A DNA stretch of 64,000 bases from a candidate division KSB1 bacterium (GTDB lineage Bacteria; Electryoneota; RPQS01), in the NCBI GenBank assembly GCA_016214895.1, contig JACRMR010000017.1, positions 62,001-126,000 of the forward strand, in the 5' to 3' direction. This document shows, piece by piece, positions 3,834 to 61,306 of the stretch. The notes beneath the pieces are model-generated. The model made no database searches. It was not told where the DNA came from and saw only the letters and a program-made list of their open reading frames with translations. The translations under genes were made by a program, and so were the position numbers. Position 1 is the stretch's first letter. Every line of letters begins with the position of its first letter.

Positions 3834-5237
3834 ATGCGAACTGCTGTGACGTTGGGCCTGATTTGCTGCTGCGCGGTGTGCTGTGCGCAGCCGGATACGT
3901 TGTGGACGAGGGTGCTGGGGGATAGTGTTGGGACTTCACTTGGGAGCATTGACTGCGCACCGAATGGTGACGTCATCATCGCCACGCACAGAGTGGCGCC
4001 TGACCCGGAACAGAGCTGGCTTGCCCGAGTTGACCCCTCTGGGAACGTCGTTTGGCTGCGACATTATGCAGGAGTGCGAATTTTGGACGTGCGGGCACTC
4101 TCGTCCAACAACTTGGTAGCGCTTGCCAGTGGTAGCATTCGAATTCTCACGGGCGATGGCGATTCCCTGGACACTCACAGCGATGAGTCCCCCTTTCAGT
4201 ATCTCTTGATTCGGGGTGCCCACAACAACTTCTATACAGGATTTCGCACGTCGTATGTGTACTGGAGAAACGGATCGCCCCACGGGGTGATGGGAATCTT
4301 CCCGATCGAAGCTGACAGCATGGGAATGCCTGGGAATCAATGGACCGGTGGTTCGGAGAATTGTGAAGGTGAGACATTGCTCCAAGATGTCCAAGAGGGG
4401 CCCGGAGGCTCGTACACCGCGGTTGGTCCACATGAGTGTGACTACTACTACCTACGTGCGAGACATACAGAGCAAGGGCACTGGTGGAATCACGAGTTTT
4501 CGTGGAACGGCGGAAACGGATGGCTAGTTGAGAGCGCCATTGAACGTTTGCCCTCCGAAGTTACCGTGATTGCAGCCGATGTCACGTTCGAAGGAACCGA
4601 TAGCGTCCACCTCTATTTCTTGCAGGATGATGGTACCCTTTTGCGAACGGCGGATGTGCAGAGTCCTTTCAGTTTTCATTTGGCCGACATGAAAGCCGTG
4701 CCCGATGGCTGCGTATTGCTTGGAACGGCGCACTACGGCGGCGATGCCGGGACGGATATCGCCATTATTAAACTGGACGCCTCGGGCTATCAAGAGTGGA
4801 CTACGACATTTGGCGGAGACGGATCTGAGTCAGCTTCGGAGCTTGTTATTCACTCAGACGGGGCGTGTACGATACTTGGCTCAATAGTGCCGGCCGGGGG
4901 AAGCACCCAGAGCCCGTACCTGCTTCGCACGGGTAGTGTCTTGACCTCTGTTGGCAAAAACAGGGGCTTGTCGCCACGCTTCTCCCTCTCCCCCGCCTTC
5001 CCCAATCCCTTCAACCCGTCCACCGAGATTCGCTTCGAGGTGGGGCGAACGGAGCAGGTGAAGCTCACGGTGTTTGATCTGTTGGGACGCGAAGTGGCTG
5101 TGCTGGCCGACGAGACTATGAGCGCGGGGAGCTATGCACGCACGTTCGACGGCCACGGCCTCGCGTCGGGGATGTACCTCTATCGCCTCGAAGCCGGCGA
5201 GGAGGTGCAGACGCGGAAGATGGTGCTGCTGAAGTAA
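3834..5237 (+). CDS. T9SS-sorted secreted protein
   Basis: The protein has 467 residues; GAGGAGG at 3821-3827 sets the ATG. Signal peptide at residues 1-18 (MRTAVTLGLICCCAVCCA). The body holds loosely conserved propeller-like repeats (PDTLWTRVLGD, DASGYQEWTTTFGGDGSES). Residues ~385-467 form a type A sorting tail: FPNPFNPSTEIRFEV, LTVFDLLGREVAVLADE, GLASGMYLYRL, KMVLLK. In T9SS bacteria this tail directs export across the outer membrane and is removed or replaced by an anchor. Base composition is lower in GC than the neighbours. REP hairpins follow the stop. Confidence 0.85.
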   Translation: MRTAVTLGLICCCAVCCAQPDTLWTRVLGDSVGTSLGSIDCAPNGDVIIATHRVAPDPEQSWLARVDPSGNVVWLRHYAGVRILDVRALSSNNLVALASGSIRILTGDGDSLDTHSDESPFQYLLIRGAHNNFYTGFRTSYVYWRNGSPHGVMGIFPIEADSMGMPGNQWTGGSENCEGETLLQDVQEGPGGSYTAVGPHECDYYYLRARHTEQGHWWNHEFSWNGGNGWLVESAIERLPSEVTVIAADVTFEGTDSVHLYFLQDDGTLLRTADVQSPFSFHLADMKAVPDGCVLLGTAHYGGDAGTDIAIIKLDASGYQEWTTTFGGDGSESASELVIHSDGACTILGSIVPAGGSTQSPYLLRTGSVLTSVGKNRGLSPRFSLSPAFPNPFNPSTEIRFEVGRTEQVKLTVFDLLGREVAVLADETMSAGSYARTFDGHGLASGMYLYRLEAGEEVQTRKMVLLK

Positions 5238-5487
5238 CCCGTTGGATTGATACCCCGAGCGCACGCAGTGCGCCGCTACGAAGGTGCGAAGGGATCGTGG
5301 TCTATGCGGGGCGGGCGGGATGGGCGAGCGAACCCCCGAGCGCACGCAGCGGGCCGCTTCGAAGCTCTATTATGCCTTGTGTGATCGTTACCCCCTCGCA
5401 GTGCGGAGATTCTCCGAGCGACAAGCCAACGTGGTTGAACGACCGTAGCGGCGCACTGCGTGCGCTCGGGATACACCGGATCAACCC
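5238..5487. repeat. REP hairpin cluster 5' of the first RAYT gene
   Basis: There are three copies of a hairpin with stem GCGCAC-GCA-GTGCGC followed by CGCTAC (GTAGCG on the other strand): 5253-5283 on one strand, a variant at 5333-5363, and 5443-5470 in the opposite orientation. The first and last copies make an inverted pair, the BIME-like arrangement typical of REP elements mobilised by RAYT proteins. No gene is present. The first copy may also act as a terminator for the T9SS gene upstream. Confidence 0.8.
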
Positions 5488-6042
5488 ATGACGGGTAGCA
5501 TTCCCGATCCGCGATTCAAGTCGGTGCGGTTGAAATACCTGCGGTACTCCGAGCCCGGAGCGTATTTTGTAACGATTGTTACCGCGCGACGCGAGAGCCT
5601 GTTTGGCGTGATCGAAGATGGACAGATGGTTGCCAACGAGGCGGGGCAGATCGTGATTGACGAGTGGCTACGAACCATCGCCATGCGCACACGGCTCACC
5701 ATGGATGCGTTCTGTCTGATGCCCAATCATTTTCATGCCGTGGTCGTGATGGGCGAAGCTGCTCCAAGCGCACGCAGTGCGCCGCTACGAAACGAGCTGT
5801 TGCTTCGGCGGTGGAATGAGCGGGCGCCTGATTCCCTCAGCACGATCATGGCAGGCTTCAAAGCCGCCACGACGAAACGAATCAACGAACTGCGCTGCGC
5901 TCGGGGACAGTCGGTCTGGCAACATCGCTTCCATGAACACGTCGTGCGCGGGGACCGCGACCTCGCGCAAATTCGTGATTACATTCTGGGCAATCCTGCG
6001 CAGTGGTCAGCGGATCATGAGAACCCCGAGCGCCGACCGTAG
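5488..6042 (+). CDS. REP-associated tyrosine transposase (RAYT, IS200-like HUH nuclease)
   Basis: The protein has 184 residues and belongs to the Y1 transposase family. The HUH motif is at residues 78-84 (MPNHFHA) and the likely catalytic Tyr165 lies in IRDYILGNPAQW. Between them is the family block FKAATTKRINELR. Known RAYTs nick and move REP hairpins carrying GTAG, and REP copies lie on both sides of this gene and inside it. Residues 92-102 (APSARSAPLRN) are encoded by an inserted REP copy at 5764-5791, and the TAG stop is the TAG of another REP copy. The nuclease signature residues look intact, so activity is plausible. Confidence 0.9.
   Translation: MTGSIPDPRFKSVRLKYLRYSEPGAYFVTIVTARRESLFGVIEDGQMVANEAGQIVIDEWLRTIAMRTRLTMDAFCLMPNHFHAVVVMGEAAPSARSAPLRNELLLRRWNERAPDSLSTIMAGFKAATTKRINELRCARGQSVWQHRFHEHVVRGDRDLAQIRDYILGNPAQWSADHENPERRP
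5764..5791 (-). repeat. REP copy inside the RAYT reading frame
   Basis: The sequence AAGCGCACGCAGTGCGCC followed by GCTACG is the same hairpin as in the flanking cluster. It has a length that keeps the reading frame open and encodes APSARSAPLR between the HUH motif and the tyrosine helix. The second RAYT gene has its own REP type at the equivalent position. Confidence 0.85.
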
Positions 6043-6064
6043 CGGCGCACTGCGTGCGCCCGGT
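6030..6064 (-). repeat. REP copy that supplies the RAYT stop codon
   Basis: CCGTAGCGGCGCACTGCGTG plus CGC is a full hairpin copy in the reverse orientation relative to 5253. The RAYT frame ends on its TAG (6040-6042), preceded by CCG. Confidence 0.85.
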
Positions 6065-6089: not shown

Positions 6090-7625
6090 ATGAAACTCCT
6101 GAACCTCCTTGAGCAGCGGATCGTGGCGGCGGCAACGCTGCTCGTGTTGCTCGCGGCCTGTGAAGGCTACTACCTGTCCGTCGAACACGCGCTGGCCGGG
6201 ACGTACGGCTTCTCGCTCGACGACTCGTGGATTCATGCCACCTTCGCGCGCAATCTGCTCGATGGGCACGGCTGGTCGTTCAACATCGGCGAGCAGATCT
6301 CCGCTTCGACCGCGCCGCTCTATACCGCGCTGCTGGCGCTCGGGTTCGCAATCACGGGAAACATGGTCTGGGCGGGTAAGATCATCGGCATGCTCGGGCT
6401 GGCGGCGAGCGCGGGGTTTGTGTATTTGGGGGTTGAGGCACTGACTACCCCCCCCTACCCCCCCGTGAACGGAGGGGAGACGAAGGCACCCCCCCCCGCC
6501 CCCCCAAGCGAGTTGGGGGGGAGCCGGATCGCCGCATGGCTGGCGGCGGGGTTGATCGTGACGAGTCCAGCACTGTTGTGGGCAAGCCTGAGCGGCATGG
6601 AATCGACCACACAGCTCGCGCTGGTGTGCGCGGCGCTCTACATGTTCGCGACAGCACGCTACCGCTGGATGATTGCGCTGCTCGCGTTGGCGGTCTGGAC
6701 GCGACCGGAAAGCGTGATGCTGCTCGGTCTGGGTTGGCTGGCGATTCCCCAGCGCGAGAAGTTGCGAACGCTCGCGATCGGTACCGCGATCTTGCTGCCG
6801 TACTTCGGCATGAATTACGCGTTAGGCGGCTATCCCTTTCCGCTGACGGTCAAGACCAAGTCGCTGCTGTACGTGCAGCACTTCTCCGCGCTGTTCCTGA
6901 GCGAGACCAAGTCGCTGTTCGTGGACGCGAACTTCCTGCCAATCTACCTGCTGCTGCCGTTCGGGATTATTGCACTCTGGAAAAGAGCGTGGTGGATTGT
7001 GCTCGCGCCGGGCCTGTTCTTTGTGATGATGTGGTCGCGAGCATCGACGACCTCGAGCTTCGGCCGCTATCTGTTCCCGCTGCTGCCGTTGGTCTATCTG
7101 CTGATCGGCGCCGGGCTGGGCTGGCTTGTGATCCGCAATGTGCGGTGGACAGCGATGCTCGCGCTCCTCGCGCTGGTGCTGGTCGCGGGCCAGGCTGTGG
7201 AAGCCCAAAAGAAGGCCTATCTGCACGGCCTGTCGGTGCAGAATATCGACGCGATGCAGGTGCGGCTGGCGAAGGTGATTCCGCGAATTCTCGATCCCGA
7301 AGAAAGCGTGGCGACAAATGATGTCGGCGCGCTCGGCTACTTCGGCCGGCGCTATGTGCTGGACTTGGTCGGTCTCGTGACACCGCACAAGCTGATGGAT
7401 GAAAATATCCGTGAGCAGCAGCCGGCGCTGGTGGCCATCTTCGACTCGTGGTTCCCGCCGCAACTGCGGCCGCCAAGCTTCAACGATCACTATATTCCGA
7501 TTGTCAAGATCAGCCTCGATCAAAACGTCGTCTGCGGCGATAGTATTATGACGGTCTATGCGCGCGAAGACCGCAAGGAAACGATCGTCGAACGTTGGAA
7601 ACAGATTACGCCGGATAGCCAATGA
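6090..7625 (+). CDS. Multi-pass membrane glycosyltransferase-like protein
   Basis: The 511 residues have an N-terminal helix, then a periplasmic loop with LDDSWIHATFARNLLDG, the acidic-motif loop seen in GT-C enzymes of the ArnT/PMT type. About 9-10 further hydrophobic segments follow, then a soluble C-terminus. It probably moves a sugar from a polyprenyl-phosphate donor to a lipid or protein acceptor at the membrane; substrate not visible. Residues ~122-146 (PPYPPVNGGETKAPPPAPPS) are encoded by an inserted C/G-run repeat that keeps the frame open. The stop overlaps the MNT start that follows. Confidence 0.7.
   Translation: MKLLNLLEQRIVAAATLLVLLAACEGYYLSVEHALAGTYGFSLDDSWIHATFARNLLDGHGWSFNIGEQISASTAPLYTALLALGFAITGNMVWAGKIIGMLGLAASAGFVYLGVEALTTPPYPPVNGGETKAPPPAPPSELGGSRIAAWLAAGLIVTSPALLWASLSGMESTTQLALVCAALYMFATARYRWMIALLALAVWTRPESVMLLGLGWLAIPQREKLRTLAIGTAILLPYFGMNYALGGYPFPLTVKTKSLLYVQHFSALFLSETKSLFVDANFLPIYLLLPFGIIALWKRAWWIVLAPGLFFVMMWSRASTTSSFGRYLFPLLPLVYLLIGAGLGWLVIRNVRWTAMLALLALVLVAGQAVEAQKKAYLHGLSVQNIDAMQVRLAKVIPRILDPEESVATNDVGALGYFGRRYVLDLVGLVTPHKLMDENIREQQPALVAIFDSWFPPQLRPPSFNDHYIPIVKISLDQNVVCGDSIMTVYAREDRKETIVERWKQITPDSQ
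6447..6527. repeat. G-run palindromic repeat inside a coding sequence
   Basis: Runs of C and G (CCCCCCCTACCCCCCCGTG, then GGAGGGGAGACGAAGG, then C runs and AGTTGGGGGGG) match the intergenic repeats at 20401, 47790, 50469, 56125 and 56522. Here it lies in frame within the membrane glycosyltransferase gene and encodes a Pro/Gly-rich loop. Confidence 0.75.
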
Positions 7626-20288: not shown

Positions 20289-20400
20289 AACGGAGGTCAG
20301 GTAAGAAGGCGGGAGCGCGGGCAATCATCAATTTGAGTGTGCAGCGCTTTGGTCCAGACGGGACAGATCAAGAGATGTGCAACCGAGTTGTCTGATCTTC

Positions 20401-35951: not shown

Positions 35952-35983
35952 CTACCGGTCGTTTGCTGATGGGAGCTCCGGTC

Positions 35984-37339
35984 ATGAAAAGTGCTATCGT
36001 AATTTTGCTCGCCCTGCTTTTGTCCATGTTCTCTCGTCCCGCGAATGCGTGGATCAATATCTCGCTCTGCGAAATCGACGAAGCGCTGCACTGCCCGTGC
36101 GGAACCGAAGGACCGCTGATCGGTCATACGACGGCCTACGTCATGCAGGATGTGAACCTCAACGGCCCGGATGCACTGGACGACACCTATGCCGCCGTCG
36201 AGTACTGCCAATACATCGCGGAAGGCTGCTCCTGCGCGTGGCTGCCGTTCGGGCCGGTCCCCGACGGACCCCTGATGTTCTACGTCCGCGTCGCGGGCTC
36301 CGATAGCTGCTGCTGGATTTCCGACGAGTTCCCGCTGGCCAACGGATATAACCACATCGAGCTGTCCGGTTGGGAATGTGTCCCGGCGCGTTGTTTCGCG
36401 CGGCCGTTCAACACCATGGCCGCCTGGTTCACCGACTGTATGCAAAGCGTCGGCTGCCCCTGCGACTATCCGCTGCAACTGCCGCTTGGCACACCGATCT
36501 GCCTCTGGCATGATCTCGACAGTAACGAGGTCAGTGATGCCGACACCGTAGTCGCGTGCTTCGAGTTCGGCGCGGGCGCGGGACGGCCGCCGTGGAATTG
36601 CCAATGGACACCCGCGCCGGACCGCATGCTATCGCCGGGATACTATTATCTGCTGATCAACTCCGGCGCCTGCTGCTGGGTGGCGGGATCGTATTTGTCG
36701 AGCAACGGCGGCGGCACCATGGCCGTGACTCCGGGGGCGTGGCAGTGCTACGATATCCCGTGCGCGCAAGCCCAGCCGCCCGCGTCGCCGTCGTCCGTCA
36801 CCGTGGATTGCGATACCGTGTTGGTGGCCATCCGCTTTGTTCATGACGGGTACGATGTGAGCGGTTATCACGCCTACCGCAACGGGGAGTTCTTTGCCAG
36901 CTTCCCCAGTCCGGCCATGTTTCCCTTCTATGACTGGCAGTCCGTGCCTGGAGTGGTCAACACCTATTGCGTGAGCGCGTACAACCACTTCGGCGAATCG
37001 GCTCTGACCTGTGCGCCGCCCTGTACCGTGCAGTTTGAGCCGCCGTCTCCCAACGTGATTGCCAGGCCCATGCCCGCTATGATTCCCGAATGCGTGATCG
37101 CGCCCAACCCGTTTAACCCGGAGACCGCGATCACGCTGACGCTGCCCATGGAGATGACCGCAACGCTGGCGATCTACGACGTGCAAGGCCGCCTCGTCAC
37201 CATCCTCGCCGATGGCGCGCTGTCCGCCGGCCAGCACCGCTTCAGCTTCAACGGCGCGCACCTCCCCAGCGGCCTCTACTTCGCGCGGCTGCAAACGCCC
37301 GAGTCGCTAACTACGCACAAATTGCTGTTGCTGAAGTAG
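35984..37339 (+). CDS. T9SS-sorted cysteine-rich secreted protein
   Basis: The ATG at 35984 opens the signal peptide MKSAIVILLALLLSMFSRPA; a GGGAG lies ahead of it. It has 451 residues. Two Cys-rich modules repeat (CPCGTEGPLIGHTTAYVM ... SDSCCWISDEFPL ... WECVPARCF; then GCPCDYPLQLPLGTPICL ... SGACCWVAGSYLS ... WQCYDIPC), suggesting disulfide-stabilised surface domains. A fibronectin-III-like domain follows and then a sorting tail (IAPNPFNPETAITLTL, IYDVQGRLVTILADG, HLPSGLYFARLQT, KLLLLK). Its TAG stop is the first TAG of a REP hairpin. Confidence 0.85.
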   Translation: MKSAIVILLALLLSMFSRPANAWINISLCEIDEALHCPCGTEGPLIGHTTAYVMQDVNLNGPDALDDTYAAVEYCQYIAEGCSCAWLPFGPVPDGPLMFYVRVAGSDSCCWISDEFPLANGYNHIELSGWECVPARCFARPFNTMAAWFTDCMQSVGCPCDYPLQLPLGTPICLWHDLDSNEVSDADTVVACFEFGAGAGRPPWNCQWTPAPDRMLSPGYYYLLINSGACCWVAGSYLSSNGGGTMAVTPGAWQCYDIPCAQAQPPASPSSVTVDCDTVLVAIRFVHDGYDVSGYHAYRNGEFFASFPSPAMFPFYDWQSVPGVVNTYCVSAYNHFGESALTCAPPCTVQFEPPSPNVIARPMPAMIPECVIAPNPFNPETAITLTLPMEMTATLAIYDVQGRLVTILADGALSAGQHRFSFNGAHLPSGLYFARLQTPESLTTHKLLLLK

Positions 37340-37366
37340 CGCCGCACAGCCGTGCGCGATCTGCTC
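37336..37366 (+). repeat. REP hairpin of the second type overlapping a stop codon
   Basis: GTAGCGCCGCACAGCCGTGC followed by GCGATCTGC begins at the stop codon of the T9SS cargo gene and ends about 10 bases before the RAYT start. It is identical in the core to the units of the tandem array at 37933. Confidence 0.85.
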
Positions 37367-37377
37367 GCGGAACACCG

Positions 37378-37938
37378 ATGAACGACACAAGCCAACCTAA
37401 ACGCTACAACGGTACGGTGCGCTTGCCGTATCTGCACTACAGCGAGGCAGGCGGCTACGCCATCACCGTGGTTTCACACGACCGCACGCCGTTGTTTGGC
37501 CGGATCGAGGACGGGCAGATGATCGCAAGTGAATATGGCTTGGTCGTCTTGCGTGAATGGATGAAATCGCCCGTGTTGAGACCGGGACTCATGCTGGATG
37601 TGTTCTGTCTTATGCCGAATCATCTTCACGGGATCGTCATTTTGATGGAGTCAGAGCAGATCGCGCACGGCACCGAGCAGATCGCGCACGGCTGTGCGGC
37701 GCTACCGCGTGGGCCTCGTGATCGGGCCAAACGCTCGATTAGTTCCATGATCGCGGGATTCAAAGCTGCGACGACCAAGCGCATCAACGAATTGCGCGGC
37801 ACACCGGGACAACCGGTCTGGCAGCCCAAATTCTACGAGCATGTCATCCGCAACGGCGCCGATCTGCTGCGCCAGCAAGAGTACATTACAAACAACCCGC
37901 TCCAGTGGGAGCTTGACGACGAGCACCCCCACCCGTAG
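37378..37938 (+). CDS. REP-associated tyrosine transposase (RAYT), second copy
   Basis: The 186-residue protein has the HUH motif at residues 79-85 (MPNHLHG) and likely catalytic Tyr169 in RQQEYITNNPLQW, with FKAATTKRINELR identical to the first RAYT. Residues 92-112 (SEQIAHGTEQIAHGCAALPR) are encoded by an inserted REP of the second type. The stop codon is the TAG of the first unit of the downstream array. The two RAYTs share about half their residues and are each linked to their own REP subtype, so they are probably separate REPtrons. Confidence 0.9.
   Translation: MNDTSQPKRYNGTVRLPYLHYSEAGGYAITVVSHDRTPLFGRIEDGQMIASEYGLVVLREWMKSPVLRPGLMLDVFCLMPNHLHGIVILMESEQIAHGTEQIAHGCAALPRGPRDRAKRSISSMIAGFKAATTKRINELRGTPGQPVWQPKFYEHVIRNGADLLRQQEYITNNPLQWELDDEHPHP
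37655..37711 (-). repeat. REP copies inside the second RAYT reading frame
   Basis: On the minus strand this reads GTAGCGCCGCACAGCCGTGC, GCGATCTGCTC and then a partial second copy. It sits at the same place in the protein (after the HUH strand) as the REP insert of the first RAYT gene and in the same orientation. Confidence 0.85.
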
Positions 37939-38220
37939 CGCCGCACAGCCGTGCGCGATCTGCCGTGAAGCATACCGTAACCGTAGCGCCGCACAGCCGT
38001 GCGCGATCTGCCGTGAAGCATACCGTAACCGTAGCGCCGCACAGCCGTGCGCGATCTGCCGGAAAGCATACCGTAACCGTAGCGCCGCACAGCCGTGCGC
38101 GATCCGCCGTGAAGCATACCGTAACCGTAGCGCCGCACAGCCGTGCGCGATCTGCCGTGAAGCATACCGTAACCGTAGCGCCGCACAGCCGTGCGCGATC
38201 CGCCGTGAAGTATCCCGTTT
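37933..38220 (+). repeat. Tandem array of six 48-bp REP units
   Basis: Six units begin at 37933, 37981, 38029, 38077, 38125 and 38173, exactly 48 bases apart. Each is CCGTAGCGCCGCACAGCCGT, then GCGCGATCTGCCG and TGAAGCATACCGTAA. Variation between units is one or two bases (TCTGCC or TCCGCC; TGAAGC or GGAAGC). Spacers are the same in all units, so this is not a CRISPR array. Confidence 0.95.
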
Positions 38221-43017: not shown

Positions 43018-43032
43018 TGCCGCTGCCACCTT

Positions 43033-43066
43033 CGCCGAGCCGGGCGTCCCCGCCCGGACGGAATTG
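43033..43066 (+). repeat. GCCGAGC/CCGGAAT hairpin repeat
   Basis: CGCCGAGCCGGGCGTCCCCG followed by CCCGGACGGAATTGG. The stem is CCGGGC/GCCCGG. Copies with other stems but the same flanks are at 48751, 50392, 50521, 50651 and 61015. Confidence 0.75.
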
Positions 43067-43076
43067 GAGTCCCCTC

Positions 43077-50277: not shown

Positions 50278-50716
50278 GCCGCAGGCGAAACGATAATGAG
50301 GACGCCGCGAACTTCATTCTTTCATGTGAATTTATGCACGACATCCCTCACGTCCCAGCCCACGCCGCGGCGGGATTCCTTCCCCTACTTCCGTCGAGCA
50401 GGGATTCCTTCCCTGCCGGAATTGCGATCAGCCACGAGTTCGGAGTCCACAGTCAATCCTGTCCGCACCCCGTCCCCCCTTCCAAGGGGGACCATAGGGG
50501 GGTTCTTGATTCCCCTTCTCGGCCGAGCAGGGTTTCCTTCCCTGCCGGAATCACGCACAGCCAAGCGAGTTCAAATCAAGCCTCATCTTGTCCGCACCCC
50601 GTCCCCCCTTCCAAGGGGGGACCATAGGGGGTTCTTGATTCCCGAGTCCTCGCCGAGCAGGGATTCCTTCCCTGCCGGAATCAGTTCGGCCACCCCGCTA
50701 CGACGCGCGTGAATCT
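50278..50716. repeat. 439-base gene-free repeat field
   Basis: No gene. Three hairpin repeats with CCGAGCAGGG-ATTCCTTCCC-TGCCGGAAT lie at 50392-50424, 50521-50552 and 50651-50683, plus a partial one near 50365. Between them are two G-run palindromes of the form CCCCCCTTCCAAGGGGG-ACCATAGGGGG-TTCTTGATTCCC at 50475-50515 and 50605-50642. The two ~130-base blocks (50400-50520 and 50530-50650) are themselves nearly identical, so the pair of elements was duplicated in tandem. Confidence 0.85.
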
Positions 50717-60984: not shown

Positions 60985-61306
60985 CCCCGCGGGGGCGTGT
61001 CGCTCAAACCAGATTCGCCGAGCCGGGCGTCCTCGCCCGGCCGGAATCGGAGACGGCGGCCTCGCGGGATGCTTCAAACGCAATAGTCAGTGTTCAATGG
61101 GCGAGACCCCGACGGCGCGTGGCTTCGTGCGATGGTTTTGGCATCAAGCCCGCATCGACATCTATCTTCTCGCGGCGTGGGTTGTCTTCAACCCACCCGC
61201 TCTGAGAGCCTCCCTGCGTCGAACCGTACTTCCCCGTGCAGCCAGCATCGGGTTTTCGCAGCTTCGCTTCTTGACATTTCCACACCCCCTACACCCCCTA
61301 CACCCC
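60985..61306. repeat. 322-base gap with a hairpin repeat and a C-rich leader
   Basis: At 61015-61049 is a clean copy of the GCCGAGC/CCGGAATC hairpin, with stem CCGGGC/GCCCGG. GTAGCCCCGC after the ferredoxin stop recalls the REP foot. The end (61281-61306) is a C-rich tandem tract, CACACCCCCTACACCCCCTA, that runs straight into the ATG of the next gene; TTGACA lies just before at 61271. No gene found. Confidence 0.65.

What the first reader, a model, noticed from the sequence alone, without database searches (positions are those of the whole stretch)
5488..6042. RAYT gene with its own REP element inserted in frame
The REP hairpin found around this gene also lies inside it (5764-5791), encoding APSARSAPLR between the HUH motif and the catalytic tyrosine helix. 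The second RAYT (37378-37938) has its own, different REP subtype at the equivalent protein position and in the same orientation. Two independent cases suggest that RAYT genes tolerate or favour REP insertion at this loop, which may mark the mRNA or gene as a cis-recognised target, for example for autoregulation by REP binding.
Basis: partly seen in the sequence, partly recalled or inferred. Interest (0 to 1): 0.75.

Follow-up and report, generated by a model that had tools for sequence, protein, structure and literature searches.

The report
Transposase gene carrying its own repeat
Two genes here encode RAYT enzymes, which cut and spread short palindromic DNA repeats (REPs), and each gene holds a copy of its own REP, read in frame as a floppy protein loop; this was described for the subgroup in 2018, but here the internal copy is shown to match each gene's own flanking repeats even when close relatives use different ones.

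Summary
RAYT1 (5488-6042) and RAYT2 (37378-37938) each hold, in frame, a copy of the REP subtype that flanks them (96% and 100% identical), at the same protein position and in the same orientation. A third RAYT in the genome holds two copies of its own, third REP subtype in the opposite orientation.

It is not a coincidence. In 106 long-loop RAYTs from many phyla, found with loop-deleted core queries, 59 loops match their own flanks, against 0.9 expected from core windows of the same genes and 2.0 from other genes' flanks.

It is also already known. Quentin et al. 2018 (PMC6006769) described in-frame REP insertions between HuH and Tyr as predominant in TnpA-REP subclass 2.4. These genes fit that subclass.

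Several reading frames and both orientations are used, so the encoded peptide is not conserved. Orientation and frame are partly inherited. A leader-pairing model of translational self-control found no support.

Best explanation: an old, permissive, disordered-loop slot whose REP is replaced in step with the REP family the enzyme handles. A cis-regulatory role is not excluded and not shown.

The parts
5488..6042 (+). RAYT1, REP-associated tyrosine transposase, 184 aa, HUH and tyrosine intact
   Evidence: Pfam Y1_Tnp 3.3e-6, NCBIfam NF047646 5.7e-21; HUH residues 81-83 and Y165 in the alignment; AlphaFold model pLDDT 88, best PDB match 4ER8
5728..5736 (+). RAYT1 HUH motif (H81-F-H83)
   Evidence: sequence, alignment A2: both H invariant
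5980..5982 (+). RAYT1 catalytic tyrosine Y165 of YILGNP
   Evidence: invariant column in A2
5764..5789 (-). Internal REP of RAYT1, in frame, inside the disordered loop (residues about 91-116)
   Evidence: 96% to the REPs at 5255 and 5444; codon reading; loop pLDDT 57-65 against 95 or more in the core
5255..5280 (-). Upstream REP copy, type 1
5336..5361 (-). Degenerate upstream REP copy, type 1
   Evidence: D8, I14
5444..5469 (+). REP copy immediately upstream of RAYT1, inverted relative to the internal copy
6038..6063 (+). REP copy at the 3' end of RAYT1; its GTAG supplies the TAG stop codon; inverted relative to the internal copy
37378..37938 (+). RAYT2, 186 aa, HUH and tyrosine intact
   Evidence: NCBIfam NF047646 2.1e-17
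37674..37705 (-). Internal REP of RAYT2, in frame
   Evidence: 32 nt, 100% complementary to 37336-37367
37657..37672 (-). Partial second REP copy (tandem half-repeat) in the RAYT2 loop
   Evidence: direct reading; codons
37336..37364 (+). REP copy immediately upstream of RAYT2; its TAG is also the stop of the preceding gene
37935..38203 (+). Array of six type-2 REPs, 48-nt period, immediately downstream of RAYT2; the first supplies the RAYT2 stop codon
   Evidence: D2, D5

Best explanation
These are RAYT (TnpA-REP) genes of subclass 2.4 / Bertels group 4, in which a permissive, disordered loop between the HUH beta-strand and helix alpha-C has become a long-lived slot for the enzyme's own REP. 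Shown: the slot is occupied by REP-type palindromes in most members; the occupant matches the REPs flanking that same gene, not those of the nearest relatives; both orientations and several reading phases occur; the loop is predicted disordered. Inferred: the RAYT mobilises or copies its REPs as single-stranded DNA, as proposed for E. coli TnpA-REP; its own gene, already crowded with REPs, is a frequent recipient; copies landing in catalytic parts are lost while the loop copy is tolerated. As the RAYT and its REP family drift to a new subtype, the loop copy is overwritten or re-inserted along with the flanking copies, so it stays cognate. No regulatory role is needed, though one could have been acquired.
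For: Loop against own flanks: 59/106 at score >=15, against 0.9 expected from core windows of the same genes and 2.0 from other loci's flanks (first set 41/78). GTAG-footed hairpin in 72/116 loops against 4.3% of control windows. Own-flank score averages 24-28 at all tree distances, while loop-to-loop score with the nearest REP-bearing relative falls to about 10.6 beyond distance 0.5; own flank beats the relative's flank in 56/58. The loop copy is as close to flanking copies (92.7%) as these are to each other (89.4%) (choosing copies by similarity to the loop favours the first figure). Sense GTAG phases 0 and 1 occur in 30 and 19 genes, antisense phases 0 and 1 in 20 and 36, so the peptide is not conserved. 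Frame and orientation are partly inherited, and the window's clade shares position and frame but not REP sequence. Loop pLDDT 57-65 within a core of 95 or more. Among the genome's other REP hits that were checked, the two in genes with long Pfam domains lie N-terminal of the domain.
Against: Fresh insertion and overwriting in place cannot be told apart here, and no empty-site/filled-site pair of near-identical genes was found. The upkeep of the match is also what selection for a cis function would give. REP movement by this enzyme is inferred from E. coli TnpA-REP, not shown.
Confidence: 0.6

Rival explanations
1. The internal REP is kept as a cis-acting nucleic-acid signal: the RAYT binds the hairpin in its own gene or mRNA (or uses it with the inverted flanking REP as a REPIN-like pair), limiting its own expression or favouring action on its own locus.
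For: REP-like elements are present in 82 of 106 long loops by one criterion or the other, and stay cognate. Both orientations and several phases occur, which fits a signal at nucleic-acid level. The nearest upstream REP is inverted relative to the loop REP in 18 of 24 genes with clearly asymmetric REPs, the nearest downstream in 16 of 20 (counted).
Against: The inversion bias is carried by one clade (7 of the 18); without it, 11 to 6 is not significant. A minority of subfamily members have short loops (22 of 128 under 12 residues), most without a REP. No binding data.
Confidence: 0.25
2. mRNA attenuator: the 5' leader REP pairs with the inverted loop REP and hides the ribosome-binding site.
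For: In 19 genes with an inverted upstream REP the two REPs pair with mean probability 0.94 in the fold; in RAYT2 the match is 32 nt perfect.
Against: The start region is hardly less accessible than with a shuffled loop REP (0.35 against 0.40 unpaired) and pairs with the loop REP in only a few genes.
Confidence: 0.06
3. The REP-encoded peptide itself is functional, for example helping REP binding or dimerisation.
For: Antisense phase 2 (not a stop) was seen in 0 of 56 gene-phase counts, a hint of some protein-level filtering; orientation and frame are partly inherited.
Against: At least four orientation/phase combinations give unrelated peptides (VGA..P, RG..APT, SARSAPL and so on). The loop is predicted disordered. 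Many antisense-only copies look like decayed double-foot REPs, whose geometry would exclude that phase when the sense foot must avoid a stop.
Confidence: 0.08
4. Chance resemblance, gene-calling artefact or pseudogene.
For: None found.
Against: 59/106 against 0.9-2.0 expected; open frames with HUH and Tyr intact, core columns invariant; independent published description.
Confidence: 0.01

Closest known systems
TnpA-REP / RAYT subclass 2.4 (Quentin et al. 2018, PMC6006769), = group 4 of Bertels
   Same: REP-flanked RAYTs with variable in-frame REP insertions between HuH and Y (beta3-alphaC), described there as predominant and unique to the subclass; canonical and double-foot REPs; peripheral loop
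   Different: The text read there reports presence and position. The own-flank match against controls, tracking across relatives, phase/orientation tally and leader-folding test were done here; that paper's supplementary figures could not be opened.
Intragenic GTAG and CGTC REPs (PMC3733652, 2013)
   Same: REPs lying in frame inside genes, thought to be tolerated in loops
   Different: Those are in unrelated host genes (uvrA, recB and others); its RAYT section does not mention REPs inside RAYT genes
Rickettsia palindromic elements (RPE)
   Same: Palindromic repeats read in frame within proteins
   Different: Not the gene of a transposase that handles the same repeat (my knowledge; RPEs mentioned in PMC3733652)
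E. coli TnpA-REP (PDB 4ER8)
   Same: Same fold (Foldseek E 2.9e-8) and the conserved WQ...EH..R recognition strip
   Different: Short HuH-Y distance, no loop insert; bulged REPs (subclass 2.2)

Membership tests
RAYT / TnpA-REP superfamily | HUH motif plus single catalytic Tyr in YIxxNP, Y1 fold | tested here: met
RAYT / TnpA-REP superfamily | Gene flanked by GTAG-footed palindromes repeated in the genome | tested here: met
   (18 and 28 hits with up to 3 mismatches; reversed-pattern control 0)
RAYT / TnpA-REP superfamily | Binds and cleaves its REP as single-stranded DNA | not testable with these tools
   needs biochemistry
Subclass 2.4 (Quentin 2018) | Motifs NH[IFV]H, WQ, YIxNNP | tested here: met
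   RAYT1 NHFH, WQ, YILGNP; RAYT2 NHLH, WQ, YITNNP. Two single-letter departures from the published consensus
Subclass 2.4 (Quentin 2018) | Long HuH-Y distance (published median 88; 58-67 in most classes) | tested here: met
   RAYT1 82, RAYT2 85, RAYT3 97; sampled set median 81.5
Subclass 2.4 (Quentin 2018) | REP inserted in frame between HuH and Y, between beta3 and alphaC | tested here: met
Subclass 2.4 (Quentin 2018) | No conserved C-terminal extension | tested here: met
   RAYT1 ends 19 residues after Y165
Subclass 2.4 (Quentin 2018) | 8-aa insertion at the end of alphaB | not tested
   the alignment to 4ER8 was too short to place it
Subclass 2.4 (Quentin 2018) | GTAG-recognition residues W94, Q95, R104 (E. 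coli numbers; E100 and H101 also) | tested here: met
   RAYT1 W144, Q145, E150, H151, R154 by spacing; Q145 invariant, W144 and R154 nearly invariant in A2

The most novel reading that the evidence does not exclude
The internal REP is not just tolerated but maintained as a cognate cis-element: when a RAYT and its REP family change specificity, the copy inside the gene is obliged to change with them, so each such RAYT gene carries a built-in record of its enzyme's current target, used for self-limitation or self-targeting.
Probability: 0.25. Interest if true: 0.7.

Novelty: new member of a known kind. Interest (0 to 1): 0.38.

Why it matters
How RAYTs and REPs stay matched, and why bacteria keep these single-copy transposases, are open questions. 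A gene that carries its enzyme's current target inside its own reading frame gives an internal, phylogenetically trackable record of the enzyme's specificity. It would allow target prediction from the gene alone and direct tests of whether RAYTs act on their own gene. The basic fact is published, so this genome is mainly three further examples plus a quantitative test.

Tried and rejected
Peptide-level function: rejected as the main cause because several frames and both orientations occur. Leader/loop RNA attenuator: folding gave no consistent loss of start-site access (a first script timed out). A consistent inverted arrangement of loop REP against both flanks: 18:6 and 16:4 overall, but carried by one clade and not significant without it. 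First flank statistic: gene controls were inflated by neighbouring gene copies and gene-end REPs, so it was redone with masked flanks. Avibacterium genus: only two usable genes, so of little help.

Full report
What was checked. RAYT1 (5488-6042) and RAYT2 (37378-37938) are intact open frames matching the NCBIfam model REP_Tyr_transpos, below its curated cut-off; the insert splits or weakens the match (inference). The internal repeats are real: RAYT1 5764-5789 matches the REPs at 5255 and 5444 at 96%; RAYT2 37674-37705 is a perfect 32-nt reverse complement of the REP ending just before its start codon. The two REP types differ. Genome-wide there are 18 and 28 hits with up to 3 mismatches (none for the reversed pattern), and four of the five perfect type-1 copies lie at the RAYT1 locus.

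A third case. The genome (3.2 Mb, 26 contigs) has seven genes matching the model. Four are of another type with no insert. The fifth and sixth are RAYT1 and RAYT2. The seventh (L011) has two tandem REP copies of a third subtype in the same loop, in the other orientation, 88-93% identical to its own flanking REPs.

Is it general? To avoid bias, the loop was deleted from the query proteins before collecting relatives from named genomes, the window's order and phylum, and two further genera. In the first set, 41 of 78 long loops matched their own flanks at score >=15, against 0.4 for equal windows of the gene core and 1.6 for the same loops against other genes' flanks. In the enlarged set it is 59 of 106 against 0.9 and 2.0 (one of the 59, L141, may match a partial gene copy and was left out afterwards). 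GTAG-footed hairpins occur in 72 of 116 loops against 4.3% of control windows. By either criterion, 82 of 106 long-loop genes carry a REP-like element. Record titles include Chloroflexi, Nitrospirae, Ignavibacteriae, Deltaproteobacteria, cyanobacteria and Avibacterium.

How it evolves. The loop REP matches its own gene's flanks with a mean score of 24-28 whatever the distance to the nearest REP-bearing relative, while similarity between the two loops drops to background (about 10.6) beyond tree distance 0.5. The own flank beats the relative's flank in 56 of 58. Orientation and phase labels change 37 times on the tree, against a mean of 49 and a minimum of 43 in 200 shuffles, so the slot is partly inherited. 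In the window's own clade the codon phase, orientation and position are shared while the REP between them changes, sometimes by one nucleotide in length with the frame restored outside it (reading by eye). The loop copy has not decayed: 92.7% to flank copies, against 89.4% among the flank copies themselves (selecting copies by similarity to the loop favours the first figure).

What the loop is. The AlphaFold model (mean pLDDT 88) places residues 91-116 as a low-confidence loop between the HUH strand (81-88) and the helix 117-136. The best solved match is E. coli TnpA-REP with its REP hairpin, 4ER8.

Mechanism. Sense copies use both stop-free phases (30 and 19 genes) and antisense copies two of three (20 and 36), so unrelated peptides are encoded and a peptide role is unlikely. 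Antisense phase 2, not a stop, was never seen; decayed double-foot REPs may explain this. Folding the leader plus gene start shows strong leader-loop REP pairing whenever the two are inverted, but little effect on start-site access. The arrangement in which the loop REP is inverted relative to both flanks (18:6, 16:4; counted) rests on one clade. In the window's genome, the two other REP hits in genes with long Pfam domains (a leucyl-tRNA synthetase and an amino-acid kinase) lie N-terminal of those domains. A tolerated slot with cognate turnover therefore explains the data most simply; a cis function remains open.

What is known. Quentin et al. [quoted passage not shown] A 2013 paper (PMC3733652) described REPs in other genes and suggested loops tolerate them. 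The finding is therefore a correct rediscovery. Papers in subscription journals and all supplementary files were outside reach.

Noticed in passing
37935-38203: Six type-2 REPs in head-to-tail array with a strict 48-nt period directly after RAYT2.
   Followed up: partly
6039-6042, 37935-37938, 37336-37339: The TAG of the REP foot GTAG serves as stop codon of RAYT1, of RAYT2 and of the gene before RAYT2.
   Followed up: no
3834-5237 and 35963-37339: Both RAYT genes sit directly downstream of a gene ending in a Por secretion-tail domain.
   Followed up: no
6446-6526: A different C-rich/G-rich palindromic repeat (related copies at 20400 and 47792, family D16) lies in frame inside the ORF 6090-7625, encoding a Pro-rich stretch.
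   Followed up: no
43026-43069, 61009-61052, 50390-50693: Other short palindromic repeat families (GAGCCGGGCGTCC..., GAGCAGGGATTCCTTCCCTGC) recur in the window.
   Followed up: no
L259, L263, L266, L273 and others (genus of L101, Dolichospermum): In this genus the same RAYT loop is expanded by short tandem units (GLHSEGLHSGG..., GGENNTEGGE...), apparently REP pieces duplicated in frame; copy number differs between related genes.
   Followed up: partly
all sampled loops: Antisense REP copies never use the reading phase xxC|TAC although it is not a stop (0 of 56 gene-phase counts).
   Followed up: no
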